Shown here one piece after another: positions 2,047 through 59,396 of a stretch of DNA of 64,000 nucleotides. Every line of letters starts with the position of its first letter. Within the stretch, counting starts at the first letter, position 1. The notes beneath the pieces were generated by a model that ran no database searches, was not told the DNA's origin, and saw only the letters and a program-made list of their open reading frames with translations. A program made the translations under genes and the position numbers. The DNA comes from Phycisphaerae bacterium (GTDB lineage: Bacteria; Planctomycetota; Phycisphaerae; Sedimentisphaerales; Anaerobacaceae): the NCBI GenBank assembly GCA_017993835.1, contig JAGOLX010000033.1, positions 1 to 64,000 of the forward strand, written 5' to 3'.

Positions 2047-5000
2047 TCAGCTTGCCTTACGGTTTTCGCGGCAGAACTGGGCCATGAGTTCCATGGCCTT
2101 GGAGGTTCTTTCCATGGAGCCGTCGAGCTTGGCGTAGGCGTCGACGAGTTCGAGCAGTTCCGGCGGGGCCTCGGTCGATCCGTACTGGTGGGCGGTGTTG
2201 ACGATTCCCGCGTCCAAGCCGTACTCCATTGCCTTGGCGACGTAGGCGCGACAGACTCCGATGCGACGCGCGGGCAGGTCGCGCACGCTGTTGCTGATCC
2301 CGAGCGAGCAGTGGACGCCCTTGAGCTTCGGATCGCTGCGGATCTTCCGGATCGTCTCGAACGTGCGATAGGTGTAGCCTGGGACTCCCGGCTCCATCGG
2401 CATGTCGATCGCCAGCGGGAAGACGGTCGAGTCGAAGAAGATCTGGTCGGGCTTGAATCCGTGGCGCATCGCGGCGTCGAAGAGTCGTTTCGCCAGGGCG
2501 TAGAGTTCGTCCACCGAGTGCGACCCGCCGGGACCGGTGGCCTTCTCTTCGCTCACGAGCAGGCCGACGAACGAAAAGTCGTAGTCCTTCTTCAGGGGCA
2601 TCATCTGGTCCATCGTGTAGACCTTGATGGAATTCAGAAGCGGAGGCAAAACGGATTCACCACAGAGACACAGAGAACCCCGAGAAGAGATGGGTGATTC
2701 GTGATTTGCGGCCTCTGTGACCTCCGTGCCTCTGTGGTGAAGTTCTTTCTTGTCGTTTCCATACCACTCTTTCAGTCCCGCGGTCAGGACCGCGTCGCTG
2801 CTGCTGTCGACGCAGACGGGCACGCCGCGACCCCACTTCTTCACGAGCCGGACGTACTCGACCATCATGTCCACCGCCTGCTGCGGATTCTGCTCGCCGA
2901 AGGCGTCGAGATTGATCGCGATGTAGTCGGCGCCGTCGTTGGCCTGCGACTCGATCAGCGCACGGACGTAGTCAAGCTGCGGGCTCGGGGTCGTGTAGGC
3001 GCCCGCGCCGAGGGCGTGCAATTCTCTCATGATCTGGCCGGTCTTGGGGATAGAAGCGTGGATCGATTCGCCAATCGAGATGATCGCGTTCTTCATCGTG
3101 TGGTCTCTCTCGAACAGGTAGTTGATGATAGATGACGTGTGCTGCAGCAAGGGATTGCGGGGCTTGTTGATGATCGTCCGCAGGCGTTGAAGGCCGGCGC
3201 CGGAAGAGGGCGAGCCGGGGCAAGAAGGTGGGAAGTTGAGAAGGTCAGAAGGTCGGACAGACTGGTCGTCGTCCGAGCGTTGGTCACGTGCCACCATCTC
3301 TCCGACCTTCTTACCTTCTGACCTTCTTACCTTCTCCTGCTCCGACGCCGCGGCTTCATAGATCCGTTCGCCGATGCAGACGCGGTCAAGGTTGTTTCCG
3401 CAGCGGCCGTCGAAGGTGGCGTCGCCGCAGGGGGCGTTGTCCATTCCCTTCTCGCAGCCGCCGATGGTGCACAGGCCGAAGTTCTCGGGCAGGAAGCAGT
3501 CGCCGCACTCCTCGCACTCGAACAGGAGGTATTTGAAGCCCTTCTCGCTGCTGTTGAAGAGCTTGTAGATGGCGCCGCAGCCCGCCTCGGCGCCGAGGAG
3601 GGACATCGTCTTGCGGAAAGCGTGAAAGCCGAAGTGCTTGGGGTCCAGGAAGGCCCAGTGGGCGAAGTCGAAGAACCGCTTTGCGAACGTCGGGTACGGC
3701 GTGATGAGATCGGCCCTCTTGCCGGATTCGTCGTAGAGATAGAAAACGGCGTCGTCGTCGGTTGTGCTCCGCGCGTCGGAAAAGGGCGCATCGGGCCTGC
3801 TTTCAGGGGGAAGAATCTCCTCATCGATTTTTCCCTCCCAAACCGTGGTCGCCTGCGGCACCTGTGGCACCCCCGCCCTCGGGGGTGTTCTTTCCCCAGC
3901 CGAGGGCGGCTGGGCTACATGTTCCTTCCCACGCCGGGGGCGGCTGGGCCACGAATCAAGAGATTTCGTCGAAGAATCTAGGCCCGATCTGCCTTTTTCC
4001 GACGCGTCTCGCGTGGCGCCGCCGGCCGGCGGCCAGCAGAGATTGTCCTGGAATGGCTCCCAATGCGTGCCGATCTCGGCGGCCCGCTGGAGAATCCTGG
4101 TGAACAGGTCGAAGGTGGGTACGCCGCCGAGATCGACGCCGGCGGCACCCATTGCCTTGTACATGGCCACCTGCTGGGCGGCCCGCTCGATGTGGTCGTC
4201 CACCCGCTCAGACTGGACCTTGGCGAGCAGTTCGTCGCTGACGAAGCAGCCGGGGAGCTTGCCGTCGTGCATCAGTCGCGGGGCGGGCGTCAGCGTGCTC
4301 AGCAGGTACACGTTGCCGATCACCGGGATGCCAGCAGCATCGGGGGCAGAAGGTGAGAAGTGGAGAAGGTCAGAAGGTCGGACAGACCGGTTCTCTCCGG
4401 GGCGTCCGTCGCGCGCCACCATCTCTCCGACCTTCTCACCTTCTAACCTTCTTACCTTCTGTTCTTTCGGGCCCGATTCGCCTTTTTCCGATGTCGAGGT
4501 TCCGCCGATCCGCTGCGCGCCCAAGCCGATCTCTCTGAGGTAGGTGAACAGTTCGAGCGACTTTCGCCAGTCCCAGCCGACCTGCGTGATGAGGAACTCG
4601 GCGCCGCAGGCAATCTTCTTCTCCATTTTGAAGTACTGCTGCATCTGGGAGGGCTCGGTGTACTTGAAGGGCGAGACCGCGGCCCCCGCGAAAAAGCGTC
4701 GAACGTCTTTGAGCGATTGCGGCTTGGCCTGCAGGAGCGAGTCGTGGTTGATCTTCTGGATCGCGCGGAGCAGTCCGAGTGATTCGAGCTCGAAGACGCC
4801 TGCGGCCTTGACCGGCTTGTCGCCCGTCAGCGCCAGGACGCTCTCGACGCCGGCCCTTCGCAGGCTCATCAGCGAGCTGACGATGGCGTCGGCGTTCATG
4901 TCCTTGCAGGTCACGTGCGGCACGACGTCCAGCGCATCGAGCAGGCCCGTGCCCGCGAAGGCGGCGATCACCGCCGCAGGCTCGATGTTCGCGACGCCGC

Positions 5001-53374: not shown

Positions 53375-54376
53375 TCAAATCTCCTCCCCACCGTTCTGGC
53401 GGAAGAGTGGTCCAAAATCGTATCGCCATTGCAACGCATAGGACATTCCGATGACGCCGTCCAAGGGACTGTCAAGAAACCTCTGCCATTCGTTGTCATT
53501 TGGATACCGAGCGAAATCCTTCTGTGTCTCAATTACCCAGTTGTCGGCCGCGTTCACGACTGCAATCCATCGCGGTGACACATCAAGGATGGCTCTGACC
53601 CGTTCAAGCCACACGTCTGGAATTGCCTCTTCTGATCTGTTTCCTTTCTGTGCCTGAGCCTTGCGGAATGCCGTGGTCAGACGAGCTACTTCCGCTTCGG
53701 TAGCCGCATCGCTCAGTTCACCGGACAAGAGTTTCAGAATCGCCTTTGCTTCCCAATCGCTTTGGTTCACATAGGCAAGGAATCGGACGATCTTCTTGAG
53801 TTCAGGAACATTGCCCTTGAGCAATCTCCCACGATACTTGATCGCAATGGCGCAGAGATTCTTATCTGCAATCTGACTCCCATTCAGATAAGCATGCTTG
53901 ATAATCTGGATGCGCAATGGCGGTGTTTTCTTTCTGATCTGATAGTCTGTAAGAAGAACTATGGCATCGTGCGTGTTACCGATGAGACGCTCATAAGCGG
54001 AGAAGAAAGGTTCGCTGGTGCAATAGTTCTCTGAGGGCGACTTCACTCCCAGTTCCAGAGTAGGTATATCGACACCACGAGCCGGATTTATGCTGAAGGG
54101 AACCAGCGAAGTGTGGCCATAGAACTTGCGCTCAAGAACCGCCACAAGGACCATTTCAAGAACGCTCCCCAGGCTCTTTCCATCAAGGTTTGGCAGAGTC
54201 CCACTCCGTTCAAGGCTGCGATACCAATGAGGCAATTTGCCACCTCGGCCCAGACGTTCTATGGTCGGCTTGAGGTCTGAAAGTGCCCGATGCCCTTTGA
54301 GAGCGGCGTTTACGACTGACACAATATCGCGAAGGCGCCTATGGATGTCATTTCTTATGTCTTTCGCACTGGTCAT
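53375..54376 (-). CDS. Putative type II restriction endonuclease
   Basis: A 333-residue protein directly downstream of a cytosine methyltransferase, overlapping its stop by four bases. The central segment RGVDIPTLELGVKSPSENY fits a PD-(D/E)xK nuclease core (Asp, then Glu and Lys), and a conserved-looking IKHAYLNGSQIADKNLCAI follows. I do not recognise the exact specificity group. It would cut unmethylated DNA. The gene is AT-richer than the core genes around it, which suggests transfer as part of the R-M island. Confidence 0.7.
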   Translation of the reverse strand: MTSAKDIRNDIHRRLRDIVSVVNAALKGHRALSDLKPTIERLGRGGKLPHWYRSLERSGTLPNLDGKSLGSVLEMVLVAVLERKFYGHTSLVPFSINPARGVDIPTLELGVKSPSENYCTSEPFFSAYERLIGNTHDAIVLLTDYQIRKKTPPLRIQIIKHAYLNGSQIADKNLCAIAIKYRGRLLKGNVPELKKIVRFLAYVNQSDWEAKAILKLLSGELSDAATEAEVARLTTAFRKAQAQKGNRSEEAIPDVWLERVRAILDVSPRWIAVVNAADNWVIETQKDFARYPNDNEWQRFLDSPLDGVIGMSYALQWRYDFGPLFRQNGGEEI

Positions 54377-55563
54377 AGGCCAAGGCTCATCTGGGAATAT
54401 GCTATCGGTTCGAGTGTGCGGACGTGAAGGCCACGTGCAAGTACTACCTGCGCAATTGCCCATTTCGCCAGTGGCACAGGAACGGCGTTGCCATAGAGGA
54501 TATACTGATTGAACTCGGAAGCGACCGAACAGTGATTGTCCGGAAAGCCCTGCAATCTCGCATACTCTATATTTGTCAGACGCCGGTATCGGGGCCCAAC
54601 TTCATATCGCTCGTAGTGCCGACTATGTGATGCAGTGAGCGTTGGAGCGATGCCATCTGTGCCAAAGACAGTATAACCCATTCTTGCACCCCCGTTTTGG
54701 TTGTACAGAATTCGGACTCCGTCTACGAGGCGATTGACAAATACACTTGCCTTGATCCTCTCCCTGGTTGTCTCATCCATGAAGAACTCCGCCGGGGGAT
54801 TCTCCTCTAACACCGATGCGAGTGTTGGCAAGTCCTTCGCTTCCGAGAAAGCCTCAAGTTCAGAGCAGTAGAACCTCCCCATGTAGCAGAGGCCCCACGT
54901 CGGAAATTTCTTCTTGTGGCGGGTCAGGTCGCGCCAAGTTGCGTAGTTCTGAAGGCCAAAGAGATCATGCCGAATCGTACTGGAGAGATCATTCAAAGTG
55001 GCCAGCGAAACCTTCGCGGAGCTAATGTCTGACATGCGCGTGCCGACGATTACCACACGCTGTCGATTCTGGGGGAGCCCAAAGAACGTCGCGTTCAGAA
55101 GACGCCACTCGACAAAGTAGTCCAGTTCACTCAACGCAAGAAGAATGGTCGCAAAATGGTCACCTTGTTCCATGGTCAGAAGACGCTTCACGTTCTCCAA
55201 GACAAACCACTGGGGGGAATGACGCTCTAGTATCTGCACGATCTCCTGAAAGAGAGTGCCACGGGAGTCCCGAATGCCTAGCTTCTTTCCCGCGCTGCTG
55301 AATGGCTGACAAGGAAATCCGGCCGTGAGGAGATCGTGCGGCGGGACACGATCGTGCAACTCTCGGATATCTCCCTGAGCAATCGTGTCTGCCCCAAAGG
55401 CATCTGCATATACTTGGCAGGAAAGCGGATCGATATCATTGGCCCACACGGTTTCAATGCCCAGGCCGTCACATGCAAGGCGGAATCCGCCAATGCCGCT
55501 GAAGAGCTCAACCGATTTCACGCATTGCGATTCATTCGTGTGCTTGATTTGATTCACCATCAT
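54373..55563 (-). CDS. DNA (cytosine-5-)-methyltransferase
   Basis: A 396-residue C5-methyltransferase. Motif I is ELFSGIGGFRLA, motif IV with the catalytic cysteine is GFPCQPFS, motif VI is FVLENV and motif VIII is QNRQRV; a variable target-recognition region precedes the C-terminal GYTVFGTDGIAPTLTASHSR and RLTNIEYARLQGFPD. It protects host DNA by methylating a specific cytosine. It starts inside the vsr stop codon and overlaps the endonuclease start, so the three genes are co-translated. Confidence 0.93.
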   Translation of the reverse strand: MMVNQIKHTNESQCVKSVELFSGIGGFRLACDGLGIETVWANDIDPLSCQVYADAFGADTIAQGDIRELHDRVPPHDLLTAGFPCQPFSSAGKKLGIRDSRGTLFQEIVQILERHSPQWFVLENVKRLLTMEQGDHFATILLALSELDYFVEWRLLNATFFGLPQNRQRVVIVGTRMSDISSAKVSLATLNDLSSTIRHDLFGLQNYATWRDLTRHKKKFPTWGLCYMGRFYCSELEAFSEAKDLPTLASVLEENPPAEFFMDETTRERIKASVFVNRLVDGVRILYNQNGGARMGYTVFGTDGIAPTLTASHSRHYERYEVGPRYRRLTNIEYARLQGFPDNHCSVASEFNQYILYGNAVPVPLAKWAIAQVVLARGLHVRTLEPIAYSQMSLGL

Positions 55564-55988
55564 CTCACATTGCGGAGCAAGACCGACTGAATTCTCTCTG
55601 CTGCACATGCGGGCAATTCATGCCCCCAGACGCGAACGACTGTCCAGCCAGCCGAACGAAGTTCCGCGTCGTGTCTCCGGTCACGTTGCATATTGGCCAC
55701 TATCTTCTTCCGCCACCACTCACTATTCGTCTTGGGCCAAGTACCATGCTTCGGACAACCATGCCAGAAGCAGCCATCTATGAACACCGCGACGCGCGCT
55801 CTGGTGAACACAATGTCGGGCCTTGCCAAACAGCCCTCTACCGGACGCCGGTGGACACGATAACGTAATCCCAGCCGGTGTAGGCAACGCCGTACTGCCA
55901 TTTCCGCCCCTGTGTCACGCCGCCGAACACACCGCATTCGGCGACCGATATCCTGTGATTCTGCACGCGGCCCAACCATGCCAATCAT
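55560..55988 (-). CDS. vsr: Very short patch repair endonuclease
   Basis: A protein of about 142 residues that nicks T:G mismatches created when methylated cytosines deaminate. Family blocks are MRCVRRRDTGAEMAVRRCLH, GLRYRVHRRPVEG, RPDIVFTRARVAVFIDGCFW and HGCPKH, with metal-binding Asp and His. Genes of this type accompany C5-methyltransferases. A second ATG three codons downstream (55979) is also possible. Confidence 0.9.
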   Translation of the reverse strand: MIGMVGPRAESQDIGRRMRCVRRRDTGAEMAVRRCLHRLGLRYRVHRRPVEGCLARPDIVFTRARVAVFIDGCFWHGCPKHGTWPKTNSEWWRKKIVANMQRDRRHDAELRSAGWTVVRVWGHELPACAAERIQSVLLRNVR

Positions 55989-56151
55989 CTTTCTAATCGG
56001 GCGGAGCACCCTATCAGTTCCCATAATAGCGAAGTGGCCGTTTCTGACAAGCGTGAATCTGAAGAAGGGCGAACAAGAGGAGAGGGCCAGTCCCTATTGC
56101 AGTCATAGCGGAAGAAGCGTTCTGCTCCGATGCCCGGATGCTCCACTTTGT

Positions 56152-57573
56152 TCAGTGGCTGTCTCGCGGCGGGAAGACGATCTGGGCGAGCTTCTCGCGG
56201 ACGGGCTTGGTGGCTCCACCGTCGTGGGGATGGGCGCGATTGGTCAGCAGGATCAAGTAGACGCCGGTCTCGGGGTCGCAGACGAGACTGGTGCCGGTGT
56301 AGCCTGTGTGGCAGAAGGCCAGCGGCGAGGCGTTCGGTCCTTTCACCCAGGCGTAGCTGGAACTGAGGTCGAAGCCATAGGCCCGGCCATGAGACTGTTC
56401 TGTCGTGAGCATCGCAACCGCGGCGGGGCTGAGGATTCGCTTGCCCTTCCACTTGCCGTCGTTCAGGAGCATCCTGCAGAAGATCGCCAAGTCGGAGGCG
56501 GTGGAGAACAGGCCCGCGTTGCCGCTCGTGCCTGCCATGAGCCGGGCCAGCGGGTCATGCACCGTCCCGCGGAGCGGCTCGCCGTCCACGATCTCCGTCG
56601 CCGCGATTCGTTCCTTCCAGGAGGTGGGCGGATTGTAGGTCGTGTCCTTCATCCCGAGGGGAGTGTACAGGTTCGCGCGGGTGAAATCAGCGACGCTTTG
56701 AGTGGAGACGACCTTCACGATCTCCGCGAGCGTGATGTAGCCCAGGCAACTGTATCGGAACTCCTCGCCCGGTTTGGACCGGGCGTCCAGACTGCAAATC
56801 CTCTCGATGACCTTCTCCGGGCATGGGGTGCCATTGTTTTGCTTCAGGGAGTTCGCGTCGGTGTACGCGGGCAGGCCGGAAGTGTGGGTCAGGAGGTGGC
56901 GGATTCGCGCGTCCTCCTTGCCGCCGCAGGCGAAGGCGGGCAGGCAATCGCGGACGTAGTCGTTGGGATCGAGCTTGCCACGATCCACGAGGACCAGGAC
57001 CGACGCGGCGGTCGCTATCGGCTTGGTCATCGAGGCCAGGTCGAAGATCGTGTCCTTCTGCATCGGCGCCTGGTTCGGCTCGGAGATCGCCAGCCCGAAC
57101 GCCTTGTGGTAGAGCGTCTTGTTGCCCCGGCCGACGAGGACCACTGCGCCGGGGAAATGCCCGGCTTGGATCTCCTCCTCCACGACGCCGTCGATTCGGC
57201 CCAACTCCAAACGGGGCGCATGGTCCAGACGACAGGAGGAGCAAAGACACAGAAACACGACGACGGCAAAACTCGAAACTCGAGACTCGACCCCGCCGGA
57301 GCGGGAACGCAAATCCGAAACAAATCCCACGGCTCCAAATGGCGGAAACCCTCGCGTTACCGTGGCGAGGGCATCTTGCCCTTGTGTCCCGAGGGCGTCC
57401 CGCCCTCGGTTGTGTTGCCCGGAAGAAAGGCAGGGGCAAGATGCCCCCGCCACGCAAGGGCGGGACGCCCTCGCCACAGAGGTTGCACGCCGGGCGGTCC
57501 GTTTGGAGTTTCGGGTTTTGACCATTCGTGCTTGTGTCGGATTTCGAATTTCGGATTTCGTGCTTATCCTCAT
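56152..57573 (-). CDS. Beta-lactamase-family serine hydrolase with a repeat-derived N-terminus
   Basis: The catalytic region (about residues 120-473) is a class C beta-lactamase/esterase-like domain: SxxK in LASMTKPIATAA, a YxN-like YSCLGYITLAEI, HTSGLPAY, and HTGYTGT near the end. It may be a peptidase or esterase acting on cell-wall or small substrates. The start ATG 57573 overlaps the MurQ-like stop (ATGA) with AAGGAAA upstream. The lipoprotein signal (VVVFLCLCSSC) comes about 100 residues later, because families E and K repeats lie between. No better start is visible next to the signal. Confidence 0.7.
   Translation of the reverse strand: MRISTKSEIRNPTQARMVKTRNSKRTARRATSVARASRPCVAGASCPCLSSGQHNRGRDALGTQGQDALATVTRGFPPFGAVGFVSDLRSRSGGVESRVSSFAVVVFLCLCSSCRLDHAPRLELGRIDGVVEEEIQAGHFPGAVVLVGRGNKTLYHKAFGLAISEPNQAPMQKDTIFDLASMTKPIATAASVLVLVDRGKLDPNDYVRDCLPAFACGGKEDARIRHLLTHTSGLPAYTDANSLKQNNGTPCPEKVIERICSLDARSKPGEEFRYSCLGYITLAEIVKVVSTQSVADFTRANLYTPLGMKDTTYNPPTSWKERIAATEIVDGEPLRGTVHDPLARLMAGTSGNAGLFSTASDLAIFCRMLLNDGKWKGKRILSPAAVAMLTTEQSHGRAYGFDLSSSYAWVKGPNASPLAFCHTGYTGTSLVCDPETGVYLILLTNRAHPHDGGATKPVREKLAQIVFPPRDSH
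57238..57570. repeat. Family E element with a nested family K block
   Basis: The outer family E parts are AACTCGAAACTCGAGACTCG and AATCCGAAACAAATCCC on the left, and GTCGGATTTCGAATTTCGG on the right. The inner block 57363-57482 has GAGGGCATCTTGCCCTTG and its inverted counterpart, with the pairs GAGGGCGTCCCGCCCTC and GGGCGGGACGCCCTCGCC. All of it is open in the serine hydrolase frame. Confidence 0.8.
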
Positions 57574-59396
57574 GGGGTTTCCTTGGCGCCAGCCTGGATC
57601 CGCTCGATCGCCATCGCCACGGGCGAGGGGACTTCCTCGCCGCATTGGGCCCGCTCGGCCAGTTCCTCGATGGCCTCGTGGAGGACCTCGCAGGCGCGCT
57701 CGTAGGTGCATCCGGTCTGGAGCACGATGAGCCGGCAGCCGCGGTCGATGAGTTTCTTGTTGCTGGGCGAGACCCAGACCATCGCGTTGCCGATCACCCG
57801 GCCCATGCGGACCATCGTCGCGGTCGAGAGCGTGTTCAGGATGAGCTTGATCGCCAGGTGTTCCCACAGCCGCAGCGGCGAGTCGGGTACGTCGCAAGGG
57901 ACGTGGATCTGCTCGTCCGCGAAGACCGGCGTTCGTTGCATTCGTGGCCCAGATGCTTCGCTTCGCTCAGCATGACAAATGCCGGCGGGGGGGCCGAACG
58001 TGATCGCGGCGGTCCGTCCGAATTGATTATGGATAATGGATGATGGATGATGGGGCACGCTGCCGACCTGGACGAGCAGCGAGTCGGGGGCATTCGTGCG
58101 CGAGGGGTCGGGCTCGTTGCCGATGCGGAACTTGTGAATCTGGGTGTTGTCCAGTCTCGGCGGGTTGGCCTGGATGTGCGCGGGGGCTTTCAACTGTCTG
58201 AAGACCTCCGGACCCCAGGTCAGGCCGCGAGGCTCCCGCTGGAGCATCTCGCGCCATGCCTGCTCCGTCGAGCGACCCGGGTCCTTGACGAACGCCCAGG
58301 AGACAGGCGAAATCGTGTCGCCGGCCCTGCGGAAGGGGGGCGTCATGAACGTGGGCGACCGCTCGGTCGTGTCGGTCAGGACGTCGAGCATCAGGGAATC
58401 GGCGAGGTAGGTCACCAGGCCGTGACTGCGGTAGATCTGTTCCTCCAGTTCGACGGCCCGCGCGATCGCCGCGACGGCCTGCGGACTCGACAACTGCCCG
58501 AGCAGAGTCTCGAAGAGCTGGCGATAGGAGGAGATGGTGTGCACAGCACACCCTACATGCTTCGCCAGGGCCATCTCGGTTGCGGAGTCCTGCAGGGTGG
58601 GCTGTGCCCACCGCTTGTCTTCTGCCGCCAAGGCCATCTCCAGGGCGGCGCCGACGACGAGCAATTCGACTGTCGTCGCTTGCATGCGGGTCGAGCCGGT
58701 GATGGCCATGGGCCCGGTCGTCAGGTCGAGCTTGCCGATGCGGGGTTCCTCGATCACCTCGCGCGACCGTTGCACGTGCCGGCGGAGCAGATCGGTCGGA
58801 TTGTTGAAGACGAAGAACACGTGGGCGCCGACGTCGAGGCCCTGCCAAGCGGTGCCGATGACGAACGAGGTCTCGCCGCCCTCGGTGATGGCGACGACGA
58901 CATCGCCGCGCTGGACGCCGGCCTCGCGGATCTGATGCCGGCCGAAATCGGCGAAGTCCTCGAACCCCTCCACGGACTTGATGAGTGCGAAGTCGCCGCC
59001 GGCCATGACGCTGACGCACAGGTCTCGCATCCGCGCCGCGCCGGGTCGTTCGGGCTCTGCCTCTCGCCAGAACCGTCGCCAGGCGGCCTCGAGGAGGATG
59101 CTCAGCCGGCCGGTGGCGCCGCAGCCGGTGAAGAAGATCCGATGCCTGGTGCGAATCGCGCAGGCCAGGGCCTCGACGAGCCGGTCGAGACTCTCCTGTG
59201 CGAAGATCCGCTCCAGGGCCGCCGGGATGTCGTCGTCCACCGATTGCAGCAGGCGAATCCCCGCCGGCAGGTCGGTCGCGAGAGTCTGCGAGAGCCGTTG
59301 CGTCTTCGGGTGCGACGACTCCGTCAGCAGTTCGCCCAGGCGAAACGCCTTCTGGCATTCGAGGAACTCTCTGGCCTTTTCATGTACTCGTGACAT
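57570..59396 (-). CDS. MurQ/GKRP-like two-SIS-domain protein
   Basis: A 608-residue protein, twice the length of a normal MurQ etherase (about 300). The first SIS domain carries the MurQ signature GCGATGRLSILLEAAWRRFW and TEGGETSFVIGTA; a second SIS-like part follows (LWEHLAIKLILNTLSTATMV, GNAMVWVSPSNKKLID). The two-domain size and order match glucokinase regulatory protein relatives, so it may be an N-acetylmuramate-6-phosphate etherase or a sugar-phosphate-sensing regulator. Three repeat blocks are inserted in frame (58536-58612, 58024-58055, 57948-57979). It lies 42 bases downstream of dnaA and no clear ribosome binding site is seen. Confidence 0.75.
   Translation of the reverse strand: MSRVHEKAREFLECQKAFRLGELLTESSHPKTQRLSQTLATDLPAGIRLLQSVDDDIPAALERIFAQESLDRLVEALACAIRTRHRIFFTGCGATGRLSILLEAAWRRFWREAEPERPGAARMRDLCVSVMAGGDFALIKSVEGFEDFADFGRHQIREAGVQRGDVVVAITEGGETSFVIGTAWQGLDVGAHVFFVFNNPTDLLRRHVQRSREVIEEPRIGKLDLTTGPMAITGSTRMQATTVELLVVGAALEMALAAEDKRWAQPTLQDSATEMALAKHVGCAVHTISSYRQLFETLLGQLSSPQAVAAIARAVELEEQIYRSHGLVTYLADSLMLDVLTDTTERSPTFMTPPFRRAGDTISPVSWAFVKDPGRSTEQAWREMLQREPRGLTWGPEVFRQLKAPAHIQANPPRLDNTQIHKFRIGNEPDPSRTNAPDSLLVQVGSVPHHPSSIIHNQFGRTAAITFGPPAGICHAERSEASGPRMQRTPVFADEQIHVPCDVPDSPLRLWEHLAIKLILNTLSTATMVRMGRVIGNAMVWVSPSNKKLIDRGCRLIVLQTGCTYERACEVLHEAIEELAERAQCGEEVPSPVAMAIERIQAGAKETP
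57948..58055. repeat. Two repeat fragments inside the MurQ-like gene (families L and J)
   Basis: Family L at 57948-57979 is GCCCAGATGCTTCGCTTCGC followed by TCAGCATGACA, a widespread planctomycete-type repeat. Family J at 58024-58055 is TTATGGATAATGGATGATGG. They are translated as CHAERSEASGPRMQ and HHPSSIIHNQF and sit between the two SIS halves. Confidence 0.75.
58536..58612. repeat. Family M/H fragments inside the MurQ-like gene
   Basis: GTGTGCACAGCACACCC at 58538 and GGTGGGCTGTGCCCACC at 58597 are two small palindromes in one block, translated as KRWAQPTLQDSATEMALAKH and VGCAVHTISS. The first matches the palindrome beside the RAYT relic. Confidence 0.75.

What the first reader, a model, noticed from the sequence alone, without database searches (positions are those of the whole stretch)
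57238..57573. Repeats sit between the start codon and the lipoprotein signal of a serine hydrolase
The start codon at 57573 overlaps the MurQ-like stop and has a ribosome binding site. The signal peptide VVVFLCLCSSC appears about 100 residues later, and the sequence in between is made of family E and K repeats in open frame. Either export is lost, or an unseen start restores it, or the N-terminal part is tolerated or removed.
Basis: partly seen in the sequence, partly recalled or inferred. Interest (0 to 1): 0.6.

Follow-up and report, generated by a model that had tools for sequence, protein, structure and literature searches.

The report
Repeat-built leader before lipoprotein signal peptide
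In this planctomycete and all seven relatives examined, unrelated hairpin repeats have landed in frame between the start codon and the export signal of the same enzyme, where they most likely become a long, throw-away front end that is cut off when the protein is exported.

Summary
The serine hydrolase ORF starts at the ATG (57573-57571) that overlaps the stop of the MurQ-like gene (ATGA). It then runs through a palindromic "E" repeat with a second hairpin "K" nested in it. The hydrophobic core starts at residue 104 and the lipobox-like Cys is residue 114.

Eight same-genus genomes share the junction: MurQ, ATGA, 34-103 repeat-derived codons in frame, signal peptide, hydrolase. The repeats differ: E in five species and three unrelated families in the others. 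Other genera have a plain short signal peptide.

The start is conserved: the last MurQ codon ends in A in 8/8 species (A at third positions is 6-12%) while its amino acid varies. The frame is stop-free in 8/8. The window/G005 signal peptide evolves under the same purifying selection as the enzyme. Two relatives have no ATG/GTG/TTG close enough to replace the long start.

The pattern recurs at a second ATGA-coupled lipoprotein gene, where one species lost nearly all of the repeat and has a normal 26-residue signal.

Best reading: repeats settle in gene junctions. Where genes overlap, only the signal-peptide n-region can absorb them, and signal peptidase II removes it. Export itself is inferred. 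This is a new variant of known intragenic repeat insertion (Rickettsia palindromic elements, REPs).

The parts
57570..59396 (-). MurQ-like N-acetylmuramic acid 6-phosphate etherase, upstream gene, stop TGA 57572-57570
   Evidence: NCBIfam PRK05441 164 bits against a cut-off of 168, N-terminal 250 residues; synteny with the hydrolase in 8 same-genus genomes
57578..57584 (-). Shine-Dalgarno-like AAGGAAA before the ATG
   Evidence: sequence; purine-rich GGAGAAG/AAGGAAA/GAGAAG in the same place in all 8 species
57570..57573 (-). ATGA start/stop overlap, start of the hydrolase ORF
   Evidence: conserved in 8/8 although the preceding codon varies (CCA, TTA, GCA, GCA, ATA, ATA, ACA, GTA; A3 6-12%)
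57491..57565 (-). 5' arm of palindromic repeat E, read in frame as (K)SEIRNPTQARMVKTRNSK..
   Evidence: dispersed matches genome-wide; pairs with the 3' arm
57361..57484 (-). repeat K, nested hairpin inside E, read in frame as SVARASRPCVAGASCPC..GRDALGTQGQDALAT
   Evidence: dispersed matches, self-complementary (one search lists the match of the region to its own reverse strand at 57362-57477); fold
57267..57323 (-). 3' arm of repeat E, ends just before the hydrophobic core
   Evidence: dispersed matches; fold
57232..57264 (-). hydrophobic core and lipobox-like end VVVFLCLCSSC, Cys = residue 114
   Evidence: present at the same place in all 8 species; SP of window vs G005: dN/dS about 0.09 over 15 codons
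56152..57231 (-). mature serine hydrolase, class C beta-lactamase/S12 type; SMTK, YSC and HTG motifs
   Evidence: PF00144 E 3.9e-69, NCBIfam PBP4B model E 2e-48 below cut-off; motifs and dN/dS 0.11 against G005

Best explanation
The hydrolase is translated from the ATGA that couples it to the MurQ-like gene. Palindromic repeats (E, with K nested in it) inserted between that start codon and the hydrophobic core of its lipoprotein signal peptide. Because the insert is in frame and stop-free, it only lengthens the cytosolic n-region of the signal peptide, to about 103 residues here. The hydrophobic core still enters the Sec translocon, and lipoprotein signal peptidase (LspA) cuts before the Cys, so the mature enzyme is unaffected. 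The site attracts repeats because E settles in the short gap after a stop codon and before the next start. In a start/stop-overlapping pair that gap does not exist, and the disposable n-region is the nearest sequence that can take an insertion. Shown: repeats, frame, conserved start, conserved signal, different repeats in relatives, recurrence at a second gene. Inferred: translation, membrane insertion, cleavage, neutrality.
For: (1) 8/8 same-genus genomes have ATGA in phase with the hydrolase, with 34-103 codons before the hydrophobic core and no stop in frame 0; the other frames hold 12 stops (after leaving out the eight ATGA ones) and 6. (2) The last MurQ codon ends in A in 8/8 while the amino acid differs (P, L, A, A, I, I, T, V) and A3 is 6-12%, so the ATG is conserved for its own sake. 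(3) The inserts belong to different dispersed families: E (+K) in the window genome, S in G007 (24 matches), W in G002 (78 matches), R in G008 (4 matches in G008, 4 in G007 and 5 in G002). (4) Outgroups have short normal signals such as MKSIRTNIIFLALLLLTITGC. (5) SP dN/dS 0.09, body 0.11. (6) Second case: another lipoprotein with an ATGA overlap carries E in 4 species and another repeat in 2; one species keeps only a remnant and has a 26-residue signal (MRTNSDFVLRVSFSMAVVVGVLMGGC); frame 0 is stop-free in 7/7. (7) Ordinary E copies: 32 of 39 with both neighbours called lie between tandem genes, mostly 0-60 nt after the upstream stop; only 3 of 32 copies just before a gene are open through to it, one being the second case.
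Against: No proteomic or ribosome data exist for these uncultured genomes. In the window species GTG (33 codons before the mature part) and TTG (27 codons) could start a normal-length signal. The -3 Cys of the lipobox (L-C-S-S-C) is atypical in the window species and G005. E alone is open in about half of random frames (123 of 252), so openness by itself is weak; the argument rests on phase, start conservation and recurrence together. At the second gene the other two frames are also nearly free of stops (2 and 1 in seven species), so openness says little there. The eight species are related, so they are not eight independent trials.
Confidence: 0.8

Rival explanations
1. The repeats are an untranslated intergenic spacer. 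The hydrolase starts at a GTG or TTG shortly before the signal peptide, and the ATGA frame is open by accident.
For: In the window, GTG -33 and TTG -27 would give 33- and 27-residue signal peptides. Ordinary E copies do lie in spacers just upstream of starts. My own coding-score gene caller placed the start at 57210, after the repeats.
Against: G004 has no ATG/GTG/TTG after the ATG 46 codons upstream; G008 has none between the TTG at -50 and the one at -7, and the G008 copy of the second gene has none after its ATGA. ATGA is conserved in 8/8 and 7/7 junctions and always in phase. In G006 the only later starts lie inside the core.
Confidence: 0.12
2. The long leader is itself useful: the repeat hairpins in the coupled mRNA, or the long basic n-region, tune translation or export of the lipoprotein, so the repeats are kept by selection and not merely tolerated.
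For: Insert present in 8/8 species at this gene and 6/7 at the second gene. Very stable hairpin, z -7.3. Net charge of the region is positive in 7/8 and 7/7.
Against: Insert family, length and sequence change freely between species. G005 has deleted nearly all of it at the second gene. Repeats of the same kind also sit in spacers and in a MurQ loop, without a common role.
Confidence: 0.15
3. The insertion abolished export and the enzyme is now cytosolic or the gene is decaying.
For: A 103-residue stretch before the hydrophobic core is far outside the usual length of a signal peptide (general knowledge).
Against: Signal-peptide codons and enzyme body are under equal purifying selection. The Cys and hydrophobic core are kept in all 8 species. 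The second lipoprotein gene keeps its core and Cys too.
Confidence: 0.04

Closest known systems
Rickettsia palindromic elements (RPE; Ogata et al. 2000 and 2002, as reviewed in PMC10969869)
   Same: Dispersed palindromic repeats of about 150 bp, several families, in frame inside protein-coding genes.
   Different: Here unrelated repeat families occupy the same place in one gene in different species, and that place is the n-region of a signal peptide behind an overlapping start codon. No sequence relation to RPE was tested.
REP/BIME-type repeats, including intragenic GTAG and CGTC REPs (PMC3733652)
   Same: Hairpin DNA located mostly just downstream of stop codons; some copies lie inside ORFs; reported in Planctomycetes.
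   Different: E arms are much longer than 20-40 bp REPs; no RAYT association was tested.
[quoted passage not shown]
   Same: A small mobile repeat contributes to a predicted signal peptide.
   Different: There a single case with the repeat inside the predicted cleaved signal. Here a conserved junction in 8 species, with repeats upstream of an intact ancestral core and swapped between species.
murQ gene clusters with an exported S12-type enzyme: E. coli murQ-murP-yfeW (PBP4B) and B. subtilis murQRP-amiE (PMC5061867)
   Same: MurQ-like gene coupled to a PBP4B-like serine hydrolase; the NCBIfam PBP4B model matches at 2e-48, below its cut-off.
   Different: MurP and MurR were not looked for around this locus; activity on muropeptides is a guess; a repeat-built leader has not been reported there to my knowledge.

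Membership tests
Class C beta-lactamase/S12 serine hydrolase (PF00144) | profile match over most of the domain | tested here: met
   E 3.9e-69, profile 2-325 of 329
Class C beta-lactamase/S12 serine hydrolase (PF00144) | SxxK, Y-x-x and H/K-T-G active-site motifs | tested here: met
   SMTK at 67, YSC at 160, HTG at 308 of the mature part; assignment of the Tyr by position only
PBP4B (YfeW) equivalog | score above the curated cut-off | tested here: not met
   165 bits against a cut-off of 385
Bacterial lipoprotein | hydrophobic core ending in a lipobox Cys | tested here: inconclusive
   Core and Cys are present in all 8 species. Endings LVSSC, LLSSC, LSLSC, STLSC and FSLSC look acceptable, but the window's LCSSC has an unusual Cys at -3. 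No prediction program was available.
Bacterial lipoprotein | signal close to the start codon, usual length | tested here: not met
   Cys at residue 114 here and 47-77 in congeners; usual in outgroups
RPE-like intragenic palindromic repeats | dispersed in the genome | tested here: met
   (52 other places); for the other families
RPE-like intragenic palindromic repeats | palindromic, hairpin-forming | tested here: met
   fold z -7.3 with nested stems
RPE-like intragenic palindromic repeats | in frame in ORFs of unrelated proteins | tested here: met
   hydrolase, second lipoprotein, MurQ loop
RPE-like intragenic palindromic repeats | sequence homology to a known RPE or REP family | not tested
   no repeat library was searched

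The most novel reading that the evidence does not exclude
Signal-peptide n-regions behind overlapping (ATGA) gene junctions are a general landing site for palindromic repeats in this lineage. Repeats there are inserted, deleted and replaced by unrelated families over and over, always in frame, because the product is cut away. That would make them natural evidence that Sec/Lsp export tolerates n-regions of 100 residues of almost arbitrary sequence, and a possible source of new signal peptides built from repeats.
Probability: 0.45. Interest if true: 0.65.

Novelty: new variant of a known kind. Interest (0 to 1): 0.5.

Why it matters
It shows, by comparison across species, where in-frame repeat insertions survive in bacterial proteins: in a part that is translated and then discarded. 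It suggests that export tolerates very long, repeat-made n-regions, which is testable with a simple reporter. It also warns annotators: a coding-score gene caller places the start after the repeats, and signal-peptide prediction on the full ORF may miss the signal, so such proteins may be filed as cytosolic or given a wrong start.

Tried and rejected
The idea that the core VVVFLCLCSSC is itself repeat DNA was checked and rejected: genome matches end at query 334 (57267), just before it, and its codons are under purifying selection against G005. 'Openness alone proves coding' was rejected: about half of random frames through E are open and single-species shuffle probabilities are 0.2-0.65. A k-mer survey of 859 kb for repeats in genes gave few in-gene families and was superseded by the junction survey. 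A statistical claim that repeats prefer signal-peptide genes at ATGA junctions was not made: of 55 in-phase junctions examined only three carry a recognised repeat, all before a hydrophobic segment, which is too few. Paper searches found no description of repeats in n-regions beyond RU-2 in YPO1552; the library lacks most subscription papers.

Full report
What was claimed and what is there. The hydrolase ORF on the minus strand begins at ATG 57573-57571, overlapping the stop TGA 57572-57570 of a MurQ-like gene (ATGA), with AAGGAAA a few bases upstream. It is open to the stop at 56152 and carries a beta-lactamase/S12 domain (PF00144, E 3.9e-69; NCBIfam PBP4B model at 2e-48, below its cut-off). 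The hydrophobic core VVVFLCLCSSC starts at residue 104 and its Cys is residue 114. The stretch between is repeat DNA: its parts match 52 other places in the same 6.37 Mb genome (one is the K hairpin matching its own reverse strand). As RNA it folds into a long hairpin E with a second hairpin K inside, z = -7.3.

Relatives. A search of 60 relatives found the gene in eight same-genus genomes with a complete 5' end, counting the window's own (a ninth is cut by its contig end). All eight have MurQ, ATGA and then the hydrolase frame, open and in phase, with 34 to 103 codons before the hydrophobic core. The inserts are not the same. E-type sequence is in the window genome, G005, G004, G006 and G003. 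G007 has a different repeat (24 matches in its genome). G002 has a third, with sharp ends (78 matches). G008 has a fourth. Other genera have an ordinary short lipoprotein signal directly after the start, for example MKSIRTNIIFLALLLLTITGC and MKLIRRITIFLTLLLCLAAGC. A protein tree puts the eight species in one clade (99/98). The three labels (E, other repeat, none) need four changes in all, so the inserts are partly inherited and partly replaced; E in the common ancestor is possible but not shown.

Is the ATGA the real start? The last codon of MurQ is CCA, TTA, GCA, GCA, ATA, ATA, ACA and GTA in the eight species. The amino acid varies but the third base is always A, although A is only 6-12% of third positions in these genes. 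This is what selection for the ATG would leave. Frame 0 has no stop in any species. Frame +1 has 12 stops besides the ATGA ones and frame +2 has 6. By dinucleotide shuffling alone the joint chance of openness is about 10^-3.6, before counting that the ATG is in phase each time. The species are related, so these are rough numbers. In G004 no ATG, GTG or TTG follows the ATG 46 codons upstream. In G008 none lies between a TTG 50 codons upstream and one inside the core. In the window species a GTG or TTG could make a normal-length signal, so for this one species an internal start is not excluded.

Is export kept? Between the window and G005 the signal peptide (15 codons) has dN/dS about 0.09 and the enzyme body 0.11. 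The core and the Cys are present in all eight species. The window's lipobox, L-C-S-S-C, is unusual at -3, so lipoprotein status there is likely but not certain. Loss of export is not supported.

A second, independent gene. A survey of E copies in the window's genome turned up another lipoprotein (C85:182574, no Pfam family) with the same layout: upstream gene, ATGA, E, then AFLLVVVVLSLLIGGC. Of seven same-genus orthologues, four carry E and two carry a different repeat-like insert (RTEDRGQ type, not checked for copy number). G005 keeps only a scrap of the 3' arm, giving a normal 26-residue signal, MRTNSDFVLRVSFSMAVVVGVLMGGC. All seven are ATGA-coupled and in frame, though there the other two frames are nearly stop-free as well. 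In three other genera the gene has a separate start and a short signal. The G005 copy shows that the gene can do without the insert. A third, weaker case is a K-like repeat before the first membrane segment of a DoxX-like protein (named by its look, not searched), also at ATGA.

Why there. Of 39 long E copies with both neighbours called, 32 lie between genes on the same strand, most of them 0-60 nt after the upstream stop and 10-50 nt before the next start. Only 3 of 32 copies lying just before a gene are open through to it, one of them the second lipoprotein. So E is normally a spacer element. My explanation, an inference, is that at overlapping junctions there is no spacer, so repeats arriving there fall just inside the downstream ORF. 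They survive only if in frame and harmless, which a signal-peptide n-region allows because it stays in the cytosol and is discarded after LspA cleavage. MurQ itself carries repeat-derived inserts in a variable loop, so in-frame tolerance is wider in this genus than the n-region alone.

Function of the host gene, from established knowledge. murQ is clustered with yfeW (PBP4B) in E. coli and with amiE, an extracellular MurNAc-L-alanine amidase, in B. subtilis (PMC5061867). An exported S12 enzyme coupled to MurQ would fit cell-wall recycling. This was not tested.

Relation to what is known. In-frame palindromic repeats in ORFs are known from Rickettsia (reviewed in PMC10969869) and as intragenic REPs (PMC3733652). 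[quoted passage not shown] What appears new is the repeated use of one site by unrelated repeat families across species, at start/stop-overlapping lipoprotein genes. I rate it a new variant of a known kind, interest 0.5.

Noticed in passing
window 57920-58054 (minus strand): The MurQ-like protein carries two repeat-derived in-frame inserts in a loop (PHHPSSIIHNQF and CHAERSEASGPRMQ); G007 has a different repeat-like insert in the same loop.
   Followed up: partly
L190:1501 onward (G006:C93): An E element sits between the ATG and the start of a mature protein (TAQAADTSSW..); the E 3' arm seems to supply the only hydrophobic segment, a possible signal peptide made from a repeat.
   Followed up: no
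L174:1501 (G003), L132:1561-1630 and possibly C85:51597-51666 (G000): E fragments run into the N-terminus of proteins beginning YDLEDRTFAFAR.., which look like S23-type four-helix proteins (from memory, not searched); the C85 gene was flagged by position only and its protein was not examined.
   Followed up: no
L044 and L046, about positions 2670-3000: A sister group has the same hydrolase behind a different upstream gene, again with E before the hydrophobic core; L044 would start at a GTGA overlap, but L046 would not.
   Followed up: partly
G000:C104, about 104.8 kb (minus strand; position 70197 of the reversed 175 kb stretch): Rhodanese-type gene overlapping (ATGA) a DoxX-like membrane protein with a K-like repeat (STGVPPVIHGQDAHAT) before its first membrane segment.
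   Followed up: partly
window 54373-56024 (minus strand): Downstream of the hydrolase lie a Vsr-like endonuclease and a DNA cytosine methyltransferase by the look of their translations, probably a restriction-modification cluster.
   Followed up: no
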